Virus record (IMG/VR): IMGVR_UViG_3300044951_001239
Coordinates: 1-64,000 of that record
Source of the DNA: a virus
DNA: 64,000 nucleotides
Strand: one strand, 5' to 3'
Both the position numbers and the translations under genes were made by a program. Position 1 is the first letter of the stretch. The number at the start of each line of letters is the position of its first letter. The notes beneath the pieces are model-generated. The model searched no databases, had not been told where the DNA came from, and saw only the letters and a program-made list of their open reading frames with translations. Shown here in pieces: positions 16,243 to 23,751 of this stretch.

Positions 16243-18033
16243 TTACATTCCAGTATCTGCTGGGGCAGGCTGTCCCCCAGGAGTGTTGCCTACAGGTCCC
16301 ACTACTTCCGGTCCAGTTGGTTGTTCGCCTTCTTCTGGGTTATTTTCAATTCCGTCAGCAGTTTCTAAATCACTTTCTATGCCGCCGGCGCTAACACCAA
16401 TATTACGCAAATCGCTACTTGATGCTTCAACCTCAGCATCTTTGCCGTTTTCTTCGCGCCACATCTTCTCGTTCTTGTTGATTTCTTCTTCACTTAATCC
16501 CAAGAATCGTTCTAGTGCAAAGCGTTTACTGATATAAGGAAATGCTTCCATACTAGCAAATGTACTTACCCGTGCGTTATCTAGTTCGCTTTGGCGATAA
16601 GCTGCAAAATTTTGAGGTGGATTAAATTCCAATGTAAATAACCCACTATCAATATTGAAACCTCTCCAACGCAAAAATAACTTGAATTCTTCATCTAACT
16701 TATGGCTCATGTACTTCTGTAGTCGTTCGCAATATTGATTGAAGCGGAACTCTTGGATCATTGCTGTTCCAACACGACCATCACTTAATGGTGTAGTATT
16801 ATCATCAGGACCAGTTGGTAAATATGAACTTGGTACACGCAAACCACGGGCTAATCTGTTATTGAAGTATTTCAAGTCATCAATTTCACCAAGATTTTGT
16901 CCACCTGGCAATACTTCAACACTACTTCCTCTGCCGTCTGCTGTTACTGGAAAGAAGTAATCCTCATTCATTGAAAGTGGCGAATAACTAGCATCAACGA
17001 TCGCTGATCCGCCATTGGTGCTAGGAATTCGTCTTTGATGAATCTCATTTTTAATACGCTCAACAAAAGCCATGGCCAAATGACTTGGCATATTTCCAAC
17101 GTCAATCTTAAACATTCTCCGTTCTGGTGCGCGTTGTACACGATAGATAAGAACCGCATCTTCTAGTAATTCTTTCTGCTTATAAACTTTGAAAATGTTC
17201 TCTAGTATTGATTGACCAAATGGCCAGAATCTATCTAATCCTTCAGTTAAACTCAAGTGAACAATGTGTTTAGCGTCAATTGCTGATTCACTTTGTCCTA
17301 ATGTAAAACGAGATCCAGTAGTATTGTAGGGCATACTTGGAACAGTATATCCACCACCGCCCCCGCCGCCTGAACCTCCACCTGTACCACCCAAGCCTGT
17401 TGCTGGATTGGCAGCAAAGTCTGAGTTAGTTTTCTGTGCTACAGTAAGATTCTGTAGATTTATATTAATGTCTTTGATAACATATTGTTCTGGCTTTTTG
17501 CCTTCGCTTTCATTAACAATAACTTTGATTACTTTAGTATTATCAATCCAGTATAGTTTGAAGTTTTCTGGATCTCGGACGAATACTTGATCTCCGTACT
17601 TGATTGTATTACGGAAGATTTTGAATGTTCTTGTTCCAAATTCGTTTAGTTTACACCATTGTTGTAATTGTTTCTTAAGCAATTCTACTTCGTGAGGAGT
17701 TGGATCTTCTGCAAATGCTAGATTGAATGGGGTATCATTGTGTTCGTTTTTCTGTGTACTGAATTCTGAAATGATATCTAAACAGGCGTTTATCTCGGCG
17801 TCAACATCCATCATTTCATATTGATTATAGCGTTCAATGCGATTTGGGTGACCTGTATATACTTCAGGGAGTCTACTCATGTAGTTTTTATAACCCATTT
17901 CGTGATTATTCCAACCGCCAGTAGATGAACCATTTTGTCCTGGACTACCATTCCAGGTGCCAGAGTTGCTATTTCCGCCACCAATGGGGCTAGAGATACC
18001 ACTTTTATTCGTAAAACGTTTTTTGTAGGTCAT
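16243..18033 (-). CDS. 20: Portal protein, T4 gp20-like
   Basis: A 596-residue portal vertex subunit, forming the DNA channel and the site of head-tail joining. Family features are MDVDAEINACLDIISEFST (about 75-93), GDQVFVRDPENFKLYWID (about 148-165), the long DRFWPFGQSILENIFKVYKQKELLEDAVLIYRVQRAPERRMFKIDVG segment (about 270-315, read as DRFWPFGQSILE and YRVQRAPERRMFKIDVGNMP), NEDYFFPV and LPGGQNLGEIDDLKYF. The N-terminal 45 residues are Gly/Ser/Asn-rich. An unusual glycine run (GGTGGGSGGGGGGGY, about 212-226) sits in a middle region and may be a flexible loop. The length is close to that of T4 gp20. Confidence 0.95.
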   Translation of the reverse strand: MTYKKRFTNKSGISSPIGGGNSNSGTWNGSPGQNGSSTGGWNNHEMGYKNYMSRLPEVYTGHPNRIERYNQYEMMDVDAEINACLDIISEFSTQKNEHNDTPFNLAFAEDPTPHEVELLKKQLQQWCKLNEFGTRTFKIFRNTIKYGDQVFVRDPENFKLYWIDNTKVIKVIVNESEGKKPEQYVIKDININLQNLTVAQKTNSDFAANPATGLGGTGGGSGGGGGGGYTVPSMPYNTTGSRFTLGQSESAIDAKHIVHLSLTEGLDRFWPFGQSILENIFKVYKQKELLEDAVLIYRVQRAPERRMFKIDVGNMPSHLAMAFVERIKNEIHQRRIPSTNGGSAIVDASYSPLSMNEDYFFPVTADGRGSSVEVLPGGQNLGEIDDLKYFNNRLARGLRVPSSYLPTGPDDNTTPLSDGRVGTAMIQEFRFNQYCERLQKYMSHKLDEEFKLFLRWRGFNIDSGLFTLEFNPPQNFAAYRQSELDNARVSTFASMEAFPYISKRFALERFLGLSEEEINKNEKMWREENGKDAEVEASSSDLRNIGVSAGGIESDLETADGIENNPEEGEQPTGPEVVGPVGNTPGGQPAPADTGM

Positions 18034-18054: not shown

Positions 18055-21000
18055 TTAAACCATAGCTTTTACTAATTTGTCAGAGTAATTATTACCCATG
18101 TCCAATCTGTCAATCATTTCATCCATTTTAGAGGACATCATTTCAAAAATATTGGACATCAAATCAGTTGTATTATATTGTTGTGAGTTACTATTATTAT
18201 TTACCACTGACGATAATGGGGTTTTGTCAGGTGAATTGGTTTCCATTTTTATTGTAGAAGATGGGTCTGGCATTGGTACAATCGCTTCTCTACCATGCAA
18301 TTCTACAGCGTATCCTGATTTAGGTCCATCAAATAAACCCCCATCAAATGCTTTAGGCATTGCCAATTCTGCATGAAAATGCCCACCGGTAGCTTTTTTA
18401 CTAGGGTTATCATATTCATTTTCTACTTTAGATAATCCCATTCCTTTCAGCATACTAATAATTGTATCACTCCGTTCTTTTGAGGGTTTCTGCCTACCTG
18501 GTCCAGGATTTACTACAAAGTCAAATGCTAGGCCTTTAGTATGTTTACTCGCCGGTGATTTTTCTTGATGATATTGATCGTTGAACCCTGAAAAATATTC
18601 AAATCCAGGTATACTTGCTTGAGCTTGTTTTGCTATTTCTATAAGTTTTGGATCTACACTAGAACCCTCTTTTTGTACATCACCGCGTTTAATTGTTAGT
18701 CCGGCATCGGTTAGTTGTTCCCTTCCGGTTAGGCCTTTGACTCCCTCTGCCTTTTTTTCCAATGCCTCTCTTCCGCCAAAATCTTTTATATCTCTTGCCT
18801 TACCATTATCTAAAACATTTCTGGCCTCTTGAGGCGTAAACATTTGTGTTTTTGAATAATTAGCTGCAACTGGAACTGGCGCTCCTTGCTGTCCTACTTT
18901 TTGTACATCACCGCGTTTAATTGTTAGTCCGGCATCGGTTAGTTGTTCCCTTCCGGTTAGGCCTTTGACTCCCTCTGCCTTTTTTTCCAATGCCTCTCTT
19001 CCGCCAAAATCTTTTAAATCTCTTGCACTAGGGTTTCCGTCTAAAATATTTCTGGCCTCTTGAGGCGTAAACATTTGTGTTTTTGAATAATTAGCTGCAA
19101 CTGGAACTGGCGCTCCTTGCTGTCCTACTTTTAGTGCCGTTGGGTCCGATGATGCCCCGGTGTTACTGCTGCGCTTACCCACATCATCATTTTTACCTGC
19201 AAATTTGTTAACCGCATCTGAAAATATGTTTGTAGCACCCATAAAATTGTTAGACACTTCAATCAACCGATTATCAGCAGCAATATTATCTTTTACTTGC
19301 TGTTCTCTTAGCAACTGTGCCTTTTTTCCCTCTTCATCAGTTGCCTTTTTCTGTGCAACTAAGAAATCCTCAAAGAACTTATTATATTCAGGAGTGCCTT
19401 CTACTAATCCCTTTTTAGCCGCCTCCTCTCTCCCAGTCTTTTCTTGCAGTTTAACAGCAGTGGTCATGTCGGCTGCTTTTCCAAATTTACCTCCAGTCAT
19501 TCCTGGATCTACTCCGGTTCTTGCAAAACCTAAAGCAGTTCTTTCATACGCGGTCTGTGTTTCTTTTGCTAGTTGGCGCGTTAATTCTATCGTTGTTGCT
19601 GTACCTTTATCAAGTTTTTTAAAATAATCATTACTATACATTTGTCTTGCTATTACAGTATCGTCATCTGTTACTGCTCCACCACTTGCACCTAATTTAG
19701 CTACACCTGCAGATTCTTTTGTTAATCCCCTTTCTTGTAATACGACAGCTTGTTGTAAATATCTTTCTAATTTTTCAGATTCTTCTGTGTTGCCCGACGC
19801 TTGAGCAGCCATCATAGCGGCCCGTAATTGCTCAATTGCCATTACAGCACCACGAGCATCTTCCTGTTCTTTACGACTAGATCCCAATAAAGTAGCAGTT
19901 TTGTCTAATTCTTCTAAATACTTTCCTGCACCAGTTGCCAATTCAGTTACTGTTTTTCCTTGTAGTAATCCTAGTCGTGCTTGCAAAGCCATATACTTTG
20001 CTGTTTCTTCTGCTTGTTCTTCTATTGAAATTCCTAAATTACGAAAATGATTTCCTAGTTTAGCAGTCATTTCACCCGTAACTGATGCAAATTTATCTAC
20101 ACCTGCGGCTGCACCTCCGGCAAACAAACTCATTTCTTTTTGACTAGTCTTAAGTACCGAGGTAAACTTATCAATATCTTTTAATGCAAATCCTGCTTTA
20201 TGTGCATTGTCTTTTAGTCCAGTAAGACCCTGAGAACCAACTAGACCAGCTTTACCAATATTCATGTACGAGTCGTACAATTTATCGTTTAACTGATTAC
20301 CAAGTTTACGGTCTTGTGCTTCCTTCTCTTTCTTAAGCTGCTGATCTTTTAAGATTGCAGCACCACCAAGCCCTAGCAGAGTCGCTAATGCAAATAAACC
20401 TATTGTCACTAATGACACCGGAGCAGCTACCGCGGCAAGTCCAAAAGCGGCGGATAGTGCAGGAATCTTCAGTGCCCCCATTGCAAGTGCTGTGGTGCCG
20501 GCGGCTGCACCCACAGCAAAGAAACTGCTACTAGCAGTTCCTATCGAGGTGGCTTGAGAGTCCAGTACTGCTAATTGTTCAGTACTCGCCAGAGTAATTC
20601 CATCTGCGGCGGTTACCAAAGCAGCATTGTAGGCCATCATACCTGCGTATGCAGCTTTAGTGCTATCTACAATATAATTGAATCCAGCAGAAACAGCAGT
20701 TGTGCCTAATTCCATTAATGCAAATTTACCTACTACCTTAGCAGTAGCGTCAGCATTACCTGCAGCAGCTTCTAATTGTTTGGTCTTATAAAGAGCAATT
20801 GCCCCTGTCACAGAATTTATGCTGGTGATCATTGAAGCATAATTTTTTTCTGCGTTTTTTAAAGTATCTATTTCACGATCTTTTGCTTTTTGCAACATTT
20901 CAGCAGCGTGTATGCTATCATATTGTGTTTTTGTTAAGGCAACAGTTGACTCAAGCTGATCTTTTAATCCTCCTAATGTTTTTTCATAAAGGGAAGTTTG

Positions 21001-21213
21001 TTTTCTTTGTTCTAACTCTGCTTTCTGCTGTGCTGCTGTCAGTGTATCAAACGCAACACCAGAGTCCTTAATTTTTTGTATAACCGCGTACTCCGCATCG
21101 ACCCGTTGGTCCTCTAATAGTCCCCTCTTCAACATCATTTTTTCGTTCTCAAAGCCGTATGTTTCAAATGCTTGTGCTATCAAACGGTCAAATTCTTCAG
21201 TTCCAGTTGCCAT
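18055..21213 (-). CDS. Tape measure protein with M15-type peptidase domain
   Basis: About 1052 residues from the start at 21213, which follows AAGGAT; a start 13 codons upstream lacks a ribosome site. The N-terminal part is coiled coil (Gln/Glu/Lys-rich), a hydrophobic stretch lies near residues 230-290 (AAVAAPVSLVTIGLFALATL), and a second helical region follows. Two direct repeats of about 76 residues lie near 695-848. Near 880-950 a metallopeptidase M15-like motif set is visible: SKHTKGLAFDF (S-x-H-x6-D type) and GGHFHAE (HxH). The end (FDGGLFDGPKSGYAVELHGREAIVPMP) is typical of tape measure C-termini. It would set tail length and be injected; the peptidase may cut cell-wall peptides during entry. 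It lies next to the portal rather than the baseplate genes as in T4. Confidence 0.82.
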   Translation of the reverse strand: MATGTEEFDRLIAQAFETYGFENEKMMLKRGLLEDQRVDAEYAVIQKIKDSGVAFDTLTAAQQKAELEQRKQTSLYEKTLGGLKDQLESTVALTKTQYDSIHAAEMLQKAKDREIDTLKNAEKNYASMITSINSVTGAIALYKTKQLEAAAGNADATAKVVGKFALMELGTTAVSAGFNYIVDSTKAAYAGMMAYNAALVTAADGITLASTEQLAVLDSQATSIGTASSSFFAVGAAAGTTALAMGALKIPALSAAFGLAAVAAPVSLVTIGLFALATLLGLGGAAILKDQQLKKEKEAQDRKLGNQLNDKLYDSYMNIGKAGLVGSQGLTGLKDNAHKAGFALKDIDKFTSVLKTSQKEMSLFAGGAAAGVDKFASVTGEMTAKLGNHFRNLGISIEEQAEETAKYMALQARLGLLQGKTVTELATGAGKYLEELDKTATLLGSSRKEQEDARGAVMAIEQLRAAMMAAQASGNTEESEKLERYLQQAVVLQERGLTKESAGVAKLGASGGAVTDDDTVIARQMYSNDYFKKLDKGTATTIELTRQLAKETQTAYERTALGFARTGVDPGMTGGKFGKAADMTTAVKLQEKTGREEAAKKGLVEGTPEYNKFFEDFLVAQKKATDEEGKKAQLLREQQVKDNIAADNRLIEVSNNFMGATNIFSDAVNKFAGKNDDVGKRSSNTGASSDPTALKVGQQGAPVPVAANYSKTQMFTPQEARNILDGNPSARDLKDFGGREALEKKAEGVKGLTGREQLTDAGLTIKRGDVQKVGQQGAPVPVAANYSKTQMFTPQEARNVLDNGKARDIKDFGGREALEKKAEGVKGLTGREQLTDAGLTIKRGDVQKEGSSVDPKLIEIAKQAQASIPGFEYFSGFNDQYHQEKSPASKHTKGLAFDFVVNPGPGRQKPSKERSDTIISMLKGMGLSKVENEYDNPSKKATGGHFHAELAMPKAFDGGLFDGPKSGYAVELHGREAIVPMPDPSSTIKMETNSPDKTPLSSVVNNNSNSQQYNTTDLMSNIFEMMSSKMDEMIDRLDMGNNYSDKLVKAMV
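18669..19128 (-). repeat. Direct repeat of 228/231 bp inside the tape measure gene
   Basis: Two adjacent copies start at 18669 and 18897 and the second ends near 19128. They are nearly identical except around the segment encoding ARNILDGNPSARDLKDFG versus ARNVLDNGKARDIKDFG, where one codon is gained. Each encodes VGQQGAPVPVAANYSKTQM onward to LTIKRGDVQK. Confidence 0.9.
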
Positions 21214-21270: not shown

Positions 21271-21295
21271 AAATACATATTTAGGAGAATATACA

Positions 21296-22120
21296 TTGAA
21301 CAACCCACTAAGACAATATTTCCGTAGACCTGCATTTTATGTGTCGTTACCTAGTAAAGGCACATTTTACCCACAGGGGTCAATTGAAATGCCAGAAAAC
21401 GGTGAATTACCGGTTTATCCCATGACAGCCATTGATGAAATTACTAGCAAAACACCTGATGCTTTGTTCAATGGTATTGCAATATGTGACATTATAAAAA
21501 GTTGCGTTCCAGCAATAAAAGATCCTTGGGCAATGCCTAGCATGGATATTGATGCTGTATTGATTGCTATTCGTGCCGCTACCAATGGAAGTGAGTTAGA
21601 AATAGAATCTACATGTCCCGCATGTGAAGAAGAAGCTACGTATGGAATAAATTTAATTGGATTGTTGTCAGTAATGAGTTCAGGTGATTATTCCAGTACA
21701 TTGAATTTAGGTGATTTAAAGATTAAAATTAGACCATTAAATTACACAAACATCAATGACGGGAACTTAGCTCAGTTTAACATACAACGTGAAATTGTAG
21801 CATTGGAAAACATGACTGATGAAGCAGAACGTAAAGAAAAATCTAGCACGATGATGCTTAAAATTTCCAAAATAAATATAGAGGTTATGTCCAATAGTAT
21901 TGAGTATATAATAATACCCACAGGTGAACAAGTGGATAATAAAGAATATATTGCGGAATTTTTAGGAAACTGCGATAAAAATACACATGATACTATTAGA
22001 AAACAAATAGGAACATTGAGAGAACATTCTACAACTAAGCCACAAAAAATTAAATGTATTCACTGTGCCAATGAATACGAACAACCTCTAGCATTAAATG
22101 TAACTGATTTTTTCGGATAA
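21296..22120 (+). CDS. 26: Baseplate hub/chaperone protein, T4 gp26-like
   Basis: A 274-residue protein of the T4 gp26 family. It starts at a TTG codon with a strong TTAGGAG ribosome site 8 nt before it. The N-terminus (FRRPAFYVSLPSKGTFYP) and the middle (CPACEEE; LGDLKIKIRPLNY) fit the family, and a second Cys pair (CIHC) near residue 258 suggests zinc binding together with CPAC near 115. In T4, gp26 is needed for hub assembly. The gene is divergent from the tape measure gene. Its last codons GAT TTT TTC GGA TAA hold a slippery heptamer, and ribosomes shifting -1 would add the C-terminal segment encoded to 22344, giving a protein of about 349 residues. Confidence 0.85.
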   Translation: MNNPLRQYFRRPAFYVSLPSKGTFYPQGSIEMPENGELPVYPMTAIDEITSKTPDALFNGIAICDIIKSCVPAIKDPWAMPSMDIDAVLIAIRAATNGSELEIESTCPACEEEATYGINLIGLLSVMSSGDYSSTLNLGDLKIKIRPLNYTNINDGNLAQFNIQREIVALENMTDEAERKEKSSTMMLKISKINIEVMSNSIEYIIIPTGEQVDNKEYIAEFLGNCDKNTHDTIRKQIGTLREHSTTKPQKIKCIHCANEYEQPLALNVTDFFG

Positions 22121-22156
22121 GGCTTCTATCTCTTTCCCCAGAAGGGGTACAGAAGC
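22108..22156 (+). promoter_or_regulatory. Candidate programmed -1 frameshift site
   Basis: The slippery heptamer T_TTT_TTC lies at 22108-22114 in the zero frame, two codons before the gp26 stop. After 7 nt a hairpin begins: GCTTCT (22122-22127) pairs with AGAAGC (22151-22156), and inside it CCCC (22136-22139) pairs with GGGG (22144-22147) around AGAA. The -1 frame is open only from this point: a TGA in that frame ends at 22107. Confidence 0.7.
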
Positions 22157-22167
22157 TATTAGACGGT

Positions 22168-22344
22168 ATGGAAAAAGAGTGCAAAGATATTAAGAAAAAT
22201 GCATTGAAGTATTCTTGGTATATGCGAGGTGGGGTATCATACGAGGACGTATTAAATATGAGTCCTGATGAACGTTTGGCTATAAGTCAGATTGTAGAAG
22301 AAAACTTAGAAACCACTAAGAAAATTCAAATGCCATTTTTCTAA
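22168..22344 (+). CDS. gp26 frameshift extension, or separate small hub/chaperone protein
   Basis: From the ATG at 22168 this frame gives 58 residues (MEKECKDIKKNALKYSWYM, then RGGVSYEDVLNMSPDERLA, ending KKIQMPFF). The frame is open back to the slippery site at 22108, and the stretch before the ATG (LLSLSPEGVQKLLDG) looks like coding sequence. The ATG has no good ribosome site. A W-x-MRGG-x-SYE-x-VLNMS-x-DER pattern resembles C-terminal extensions of tail assembly chaperones such as P2 E', which are made by -1 frameshifting. In T4 the neighbouring function is gp51, but its length (249 residues) is different. It is best read as the extension of gp26. Confidence 0.65.
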   Translation: MEKECKDIKKNALKYSWYMRGGVSYEDVLNMSPDERLAISQIVEENLETTKKIQMPFF

Positions 22345-22392
22345 TTATAGCCGTAAATATTCATTTATACATTTTGAGTTGTTTCAATAACA

Positions 22393-22409
22393 GATGAACT
22401 ACGTTCATC
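22393..22409 (+). other. Hairpin GATGAAC-TAC-GTTCATC
   Basis: A perfect 7-bp stem with a 3-nt loop directly before the terminator hairpin at 22409. Confidence 0.6.
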
Positions 22410-22440
22410 AAAGAACTCACTGCGTTCGTTCTTTGTTTTT
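22409..22440 (+). terminator. Terminator after the gp26 region
   Basis: CAAAGAAC (22409-22416) pairs with GTTCTTTG (22428-22435) around an 11-nt loop, followed by TTTTT. Confidence 0.65.
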
Positions 22441-23307: not shown

Positions 23308-23751
23308 CTATTTTTTCATCTTCGCTTCTTCTGGCGTCTCTCCGGGCGGGATAAATTTTATCCCAGAAATTAGTCCATTGTAGTACTTTCTCTCACCGTT
23401 GGGTAATCTAGTTCTAAGAACCTCTTCATTTATCTGGAGTTTAACTTCAGCGTAAACTAACGAGGCTCTGGTCTTGTGAAGGGACACTATTTCAAATTTA
23501 TAATTATTTTTGCCCAAAGCAGAGATTGCTAAATTTAATCGCACAGAAGATCCTGTATATGTTTTCCAGTCAGATTCCTTAATCACTTTTTTCTTATTTA
23601 CTTTACCCTTGACTGTTTTTCTCAAGTGTTGATGTAGTTGTTTTTTACCTAAATATTCCATACCGGAAGATAATTCAGTTATCCTATATAGGAAACCAAA
23701 CCATTCATCAATATTGAAATCATGAGGGAACTCCCAGTGACCTTTGTGCAT
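23308..23751 (-). CDS. GIY-YIG-like nuclease family protein
   Basis: A 147-residue protein. Near residues 19-36 it reads FGFLYRITELSSGMEYLGKK, fitting a GIY-(10-11 aa)-YIG layout with the variants GFLY and YLG. Later motifs KESDWKTYTGSS (about 60-71) and FEIVSLHKTRASLVYAEV (about 87-104) fit a small phage family I have seen annotated as GIY-YIG-like or unknown. Arg (R21) and the downstream Glu needed for catalysis are plausibly present (YAEV), so activity is possible. It may be a repair or homing nuclease. A TATAAATA box lies 6 nt before the start. It follows gp46 by 15 nt. Confidence 0.55.
   Translation of the reverse strand: MHKGHWEFPHDFNIDEWFGFLYRITELSSGMEYLGKKQLHQHLRKTVKGKVNKKKVIKESDWKTYTGSSVRLNLAISALGKNNYKFEIVSLHKTRASLVYAEVKLQINEEVLRTRLPNGERKYYNGLISGIKFIPPGETPEEAKMKK

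What the first reader, a model, noticed from the sequence alone, without database searches (positions are those of the whole stretch)
21296..22344. Likely programmed -1 ribosomal frameshift fusing gp26 to a 75-residue C-terminal extension
Seen: gp26 ends GAT TTT TTC GGA TAA, so the heptamer T_TTT_TTC (22108-22114) is in the correct phase. Seven nt later a two-part hairpin starts (GCTTCT/AGAAGC with CCCC/GGGG inside). The -1 frame opens only at this site (TGA at 22105-22107) and stays open to 22344, encoding sensible sequence upstream of its first ATG, which has no ribosome site. Known: tail assembly chaperones of long-tailed phages (lambda G/GT, P2 E/E') are made by such shifts beside the tape measure gene, and gp26 here lies beside the tape measure gene. 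Inference: gp26 and its extension are the T4-like version of that chaperone pair. I am not aware of this being described for gp26.
Basis: partly seen in the sequence, partly recalled or inferred. Interest (0 to 1): 0.88.

Follow-up and report, generated by a model that had tools for sequence, protein, structure and literature searches.

The report
Frameshifted tail-assembly chaperone gene in T4-like phages
This virus gene almost certainly makes two versions of a tail-building helper protein, because some ribosomes slip back one letter near its end; the trick is known from other tailed viruses, and here it is conserved across many T4-like giant phages whose database entries list the two halves as separate genes.

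Summary
gp26 (21296-22120, PF12322) ends in an in-phase T_TTT_TTC (22108-22114) seven bases before a stem-loop, and the -1 frame opens there and runs to 22344, giving a 349-aa fusion. It is far more than chance. All 80 IMG/VR loci found with the extension protein alone carry the heptamer exactly at its start. So do jumbo phages only 27-38% identical in gp26. The stem-loop covaries beyond an amino-acid-preserving null, and the -1 frame is under purifying selection upstream of any start codon. Phages with the signal carry one PF12322 gene. T4 and 44RR carry two, gp26 and gp51, and gp51 ends in a homologue of the extension; the T4-type gp26 ends read here (T4, WG01, Acj9, AS-gz) have no heptamer. 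Best explanation: a -1 programmed ribosomal frameshift making the short and long tail assembly chaperones from one gene. [quoted passage not shown] So this is a new, strongly supported member of a known kind. No expression data were available, and tape-measure adjacency is only weakly supported.

The parts
21283..21288 (+). Shine-Dalgarno-like AGGAGA, 7 nt before the TTG start of gp26
   Evidence: Read from the sequence
21296..22120 (+). gp26, short tail assembly chaperone (274 aa), stop TAA 22118-22120
   Evidence: PF12322 E 7e-17 and phrog_150 E 2e-17; the only PF12322 gene in the 95-kb record
22108..22114 (+). slippery heptamer T_TTT_TTC, in phase with gp26 (GAT TTT TTC GGA TAA)
   Evidence: conserved in all relatives of this group
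22121..22157 (+). 3' stimulatory stem-loop: outer stem 22121-22127 with 22151-22157, inner consensus stem 22128-22134 with 22142-22148; the window's own minimum-energy inner pairing is shifted (includes CCCC/GGGG)
   Evidence: covariation on 45 sequences; amino-acid-preserving codon shuffle z 5.7-7.1; fold
22114..22344 (+). -1 frame extension (76 residues after FF plus stop) = C-terminal domain of the long chaperone; fusion 349 aa
   Evidence: homologous to the C-terminus of T4 gp51
18055..21213 (-). divergently transcribed neighbour, 1052 aa from its ATG; probable tape measure protein (weak)
   Evidence: no profile hit; pairwise E 0.007 to the same-position GAP32 protein; same-position BF protein hits tape-measure PHROGs at about 3e-6; RaK2 neighbour annotated tape-measure-like
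16243..18033 (-). portal protein, gp20-like (conserved synteny portal / large structural protein / gp26)
   Evidence: PF07230 E 1e-102; same order in GAP32, 121Q, BF, CBB and PA5oct

Best explanation
gp26 is a single-copy tail assembly chaperone gene of a T4-superfamily phage. Most ribosomes stop at TAA 22118 and make the short 274-aa form. A minority pause at the downstream stem-loop with the P- and A-site tRNAs on UUU UUC, slip one base back to UUU UUU, and continue in the -1 frame to 22344, making the 349-aa long form. The extra C-terminal helical domain (long helix, short helix, long helix in the model) corresponds to the C-terminus of T4 gp51. By analogy with lambda G/GT, the two forms coat the tape measure protein and the long form recruits tail tube subunits. 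Shown here: the sequence signal, its conservation, the covarying RNA stem, purifying selection on the -1 frame, homology to gp26/gp51, and single copy. Inferred: that the shift happens, its efficiency, and the chaperone role.
For: In-phase T_TTT_TTC at the start of the extension in 80/80 loci chosen by the extension alone and in 8 named jumbo phages, plus RaK2, Munch and SCTP-2. Variants with 6-7 T in phase occur in RL38J1, VmeM-32 and RAS14. The heptamer stays in phase although the gp26 stop lies 10-40 nt from its start. Stem-loop: 81.7% of cells paired against 34-54% when slid, 9 pairs with changes on both sides, z 5.7-7.1 in a shuffle that keeps amino acids and column codons. -1 frame pN/pS 0.42 before the window's first ATG, against 0.86 and 1.88 in the other frames. 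The -1 frame is closed immediately before the heptamer in most loci. One PF12322 copy in complete or large genomes with the signal; two in T4 and 44RR. T4-type gp26 genes (T4, WG01, Acj9, AS-gz) lack the heptamer. Homology to gp51.
Against: No protein or reporter data. RNAalifold proposed no consensus structure on the same alignment. The predicted fold of gp26 matched no solved structure, so the chaperone fold is untested. About a fifth of relatives have an ATGA overlap at the gp26 stop, where the extension could also start as its own protein. Phage Cygsa01 keeps a downstream ORF without the heptamer.
Confidence: 0.92

Rival explanations
1. The extension is a separate small protein made by its own start or by translational coupling at the gp26 stop; the heptamer is incidental.
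For: Database records list it as a separate ORF; phrog_18291 holds it as a 59-aa protein starting at extension residue 15. Some relatives have ATGA or TAATG overlaps. Cygsa01 has the overlap and no heptamer.
Against: 80/80 heptamer conservation; conserved residues 3-19 lie upstream of any start codon in the window and in many relatives, and in several no ATG/GTG/TTG occurs before residue 34-38; purifying selection covers that stretch. In T4 the same domain is fused in frame at the end of gp51.
Confidence: 0.05
2. The frame change occurs by RNA polymerase slippage on the T run, giving a mixed mRNA.
For: The site is a homopolymer of 6 T (7 in VmeM-32 and RAS14).
Against: Efficient transcriptional slippage usually needs 8-9 or more identical bases (general knowledge). 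The exact X_XXY_YYZ phase and a covarying stem 6-7 nt downstream are hallmarks of ribosomal slippage.
Confidence: 0.03
3. The shift occurs but gp26 and the fusion are not tail assembly chaperones; they are baseplate hub parts or hub-assembly factors, as the old T4 labels say.
For: Database labels: baseplate hub, hub assembly catalyst. No structural match to a solved chaperone. Tape-measure adjacency weak in the window.
Against: The short/long pair by -1 shift is diagnostic of these chaperones in other phages; published identification of T4-like chaperone genes (title and citing papers); Stupor annotates gp26 as tape measure protein assembly chaperone; weak structural hits of the extension to the Moogle tape measure chaperone and a Microbacterium phage chaperone.
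Confidence: 0.12

Closest known systems
Phage lambda G/GT and phage P2 E/E' tail assembly chaperones
   Same: One gene, -1 slippage near the 3' end, major short and minor long product, gene beside the tape measure gene
   Different: No sequence similarity shown here; different heptamer; proteins twice as long; gp26 is transcribed divergently from its large neighbour
T4 gp26 and gp51 (PF12322; tail assembly chaperones of T4-like phages, Vladimirov et al. 2022)
   Same: gp26 is homologous to the short form; gp51 aligns with the whole fusion, including the C-terminal domain
   Different: T4 uses two separate genes and has no slippery site (FF is TTC TTT); here one gene with a shift makes both forms
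Cyanophage and schizo-T4 gp26 plus small 'gp51' ORF (P-SSM5, S13, phiAS5)
   Same: T_TTT_TTC in phase and a -1 frame open from there
   Different: Shorter extension (59-64 aa), lacking the long first helix region
Vandenendeviridae and Andersonviridae chaperones (Adele, PMC12846349)
   Same: Predicted -1 shift at a poly-T site, downstream piece misannotated as a separate gene
   Different: GTTTTT site; different phage families

Membership tests
Tailed-phage tail assembly chaperone made by -1 frameshift | Slippery site in phase near the 3' end with an overlapping -1 ORF conserved in relatives | tested here: met
Tailed-phage tail assembly chaperone made by -1 frameshift | Downstream RNA stimulator (common, not universal) | tested here: met
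   Covariation and codon-preserving null; RNAalifold found none
Tailed-phage tail assembly chaperone made by -1 frameshift | Both short and long proteins are made, long form the minority | not testable with these tools
   Needs proteomics or a reporter
Tailed-phage tail assembly chaperone made by -1 frameshift | Gene next to the tape measure gene | tested here: inconclusive
   Window neighbour has no profile hit; same-position BF protein hits tape-measure families
Tailed-phage tail assembly chaperone made by -1 frameshift | Binds tape measure protein, absent from virions | not testable with these tools
   No binding or virion data
Tailed-phage tail assembly chaperone made by -1 frameshift | Fold shared with solved chaperones | tested here: inconclusive
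   No PDB match; weak viral-model hits for the extension
gp26/gp51 family (PF12322) | Profile match above curated cut-off | tested here: met
   62.3 bits against cut-off 24.5
gp26/gp51 family (PF12322) | Long member carries the gp51 C-terminal segment | tested here: met
   hhalign extension vs gp51 90.7%, fusion vs gp51 98.5%
gp26/gp51 family (PF12322) | Two separate genes as in T4 (feature of the T4 arrangement, not of the Pfam family) | tested here: not met
   Only one PF12322 gene in the record and in complete relatives

The most novel reading that the evidence does not exclude
A -1 frameshift at T_TTT_TTC is the ancestral way in which the whole T4 superfamily made its short and long tail chaperones. 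The T-even lineage replaced it by gene duplication: gp51 fixed the long form in frame, gp26 kept the short form, and the slippery site was lost while its FF dipeptide stayed as TTC TTT.
Probability: 0.65. Interest if true: 0.6.

Novelty: new member of a known kind. Interest (0 to 1): 0.47.

Why it matters
It corrects the annotation of a structural gene in many jumbo and T4-like phages: none of the annotated records read here joins the two frames, and the extension is listed as a truncated 'hypothetical protein' or as 'hub assembly catalyst'. It links the single-gene frameshift state to the two-gene gp26/gp51 state of T4, a testable case of recoding replaced by gene duplication. It also supplies a compact, covariation-supported frameshift signal for bench work.

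Tried and rejected
PDB fold and sequence searches with gp26 gave only chance matches. RNAalifold returned no consensus structure; a named structure was counted instead. I considered the small ORF as an independent gene with its ATG at 22168 and rejected it because conserved coding sequence lies upstream. I considered the bare heptamer count as evidence and rejected it (18 seen, 19 expected). The 2022 Virology paper is not held, so how far it already covers jumbo phages is unknown.

Full report
Observation. The coordinates and phase are exact. gp26 runs from TTG 21296 (AGGAGA 7 nt upstream) to TAA 22118-22120 and ends GAT TTT TTC GGA TAA, so T_TTT_TTC at 22108-22114 is in the X_XXY_YYZ phase. 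The -1 frame is closed by TGA at 22105-22107 and open to TAA at 22342-22344. The fusion is 349 aa. The bare heptamer is not rare in this AT-rich window (18 seen, 19.3 expected), so its meaning rests on conservation.

Conservation in relatives. In the first set, every gp26 locus with a complete end has T_TTT_TTC in phase and a -1 frame that continues as FFRxxLL... or a close variant: 20 IMG/VR loci and 8 named jumbo phages (Phosso, Atu_ph07, PA5oct, BF, 121Q, Vibrio 2.275.O, GAP32, CBB). The gp26 stop lies 10, 16, 19 or 40 nt from the heptamer start while heptamer and phase stay fixed. A second set was retrieved with the extension protein alone. More than 540 relatives were reported; the best 80 were kept, and all 80 have TTTTTTC exactly at extension residue 1, with a zero-frame ORF upstream. 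A few contigs occur in both sets. For 54 representatives under 85% nucleotide identity, the codon frequencies of the same genes put the chance of universal N-N-T TTT TTC at about 10^-45 (naive, ancestry ignored).

Downstream structure. The stem-loop begins 6-7 nt after the heptamer. On 45 sequences, 81.7% of cells pair, against 34-54% when the partner is slid; 9 pairs have changes on both sides. Because the arms also encode protein, I shuffled codons among sequences with the same amino acid at each codon column. Observed pairing exceeds all 2000 shuffles (z 5.7-6.1 for standard pairs, 6.3-7.1 for Watson-Crick pairs). Related sequences inflate such z-scores somewhat. RNAalifold on its own proposed no structure, and the most divergent members do not share this stem.

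Coding signature. In the -1 frame, pN/pS is 0.42 for codons 5-19 (upstream of the window's first ATG) and 0.28 for codons 20-77; in the other two frames it is 0.86-1.91. In several relatives no ATG, GTG or TTG occurs before residue 34-38. A separate gene therefore cannot explain the conserved stretch, except where an ATGA overlap exists (about a fifth of loci).

What the protein is. gp26 matches PF12322 and phrog_150. T4 gp26 and T4 gp51 both match PF12322 over its whole length. The extension aligns with the last residues of gp51, and the whole fusion aligns with gp51. The shorter extensions of P-SSM5, S13 and RL38J1 match phrog_634, 'baseplate hub assembly catalyst', the gp51 label. Phages carrying the signal have one PF12322 gene above the cut-off, while T4 and 44RR have two. 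The T4, WG01, Acj9 and AS-gz gp26 ends lack the heptamer; T4 and WG01 keep FF but as TTC TTT. Variants occur: TTTTTTG in RL38J1 and TTTTTTT in VmeM-32 and RAS14. Cygsa01 lacks the heptamer and has a TAATG-overlapping downstream ORF, which looks like a third arrangement.

Surroundings. Gene order portal / large structural protein (minus strand) / gp26 plus extension (plus strand) is shared with GAP32, 121Q, BF, CBB and PA5oct. The large neighbour of the window has no profile hit. The same-position BF protein hits three tape-measure families, and RaK2's is annotated tape-measure-like. Adjacency to a tape measure gene is therefore probable but not shown in the window.

Models. gp26 was predicted at mean pLDDT 82.7. 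It matches only uncharacterised or baseplate-labelled viral models, largely of the same family, and no solved structure. The extension is all-helical at pLDDT 79.5, with weak similarity to two annotated chaperones.

What is known. Frameshifted tail chaperones are classical (lambda, P2; reviewed in PMC5009743). [quoted passage not shown] PMC10885494 says some T4-like phages carry separate short and fused long genes. PMC12846349 cites the same paper for poly-T slippery sequences in T4-like short-chaperone genes. I therefore file this as a new member of a known kind. Its added value is the breadth and strength of the comparative evidence and the reciprocal link between one gene with a shift and two genes without.

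Noticed in passing
L038 (Pseudomonas phage Cygsa01) 2072-2982: Single PF12322 gene without the slippery heptamer, followed by a TAATG-overlapping small ORF: a possible third arrangement (coupled separate genes).
   Followed up: partly
loci such as L048, L060, L067, L072, L103 and L023/L024, at the gp26 stop: ATGA overlap of the gp26 TGA with an in-frame ATG of the extension, so the C-domain might also be made alone by reinitiation.
   Followed up: partly
window 22376-22440: Two adjacent short inverted repeats (GATGAACTACGTTCATC and AAAGAACTCACTGCGTTCGTTCTTT) just after the extension; similar sequence follows the extension in close relatives, perhaps a bidirectional terminator. The second was sought elsewhere in the window and occurs only once.
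   Followed up: partly
window 23308-23751, minus strand: Small ORF matching phrog_447 (labelled NAD synthetase) and homing endonuclease families, lying between gp26 and gp46; probably a homing endonuclease.
   Followed up: no
PHROG 18291 and PHROG 634: Public families that hold the frameshift extension as a stand-alone protein (59-aa truncated form; 'hub assembly catalyst'); likely annotation artefacts of the missed shift.
   Followed up: partly
window 18055-21213, minus strand: The 1052-aa neighbour contains a near-exact internal repeat (VGQQGAPVPVAANYSKTQMFTPQEARN...LTIKRGDVQK) and, by eye, a peptidase-like C-terminal part (ASKHTKGLAFDF...GGHFHAEL).
   Followed up: no
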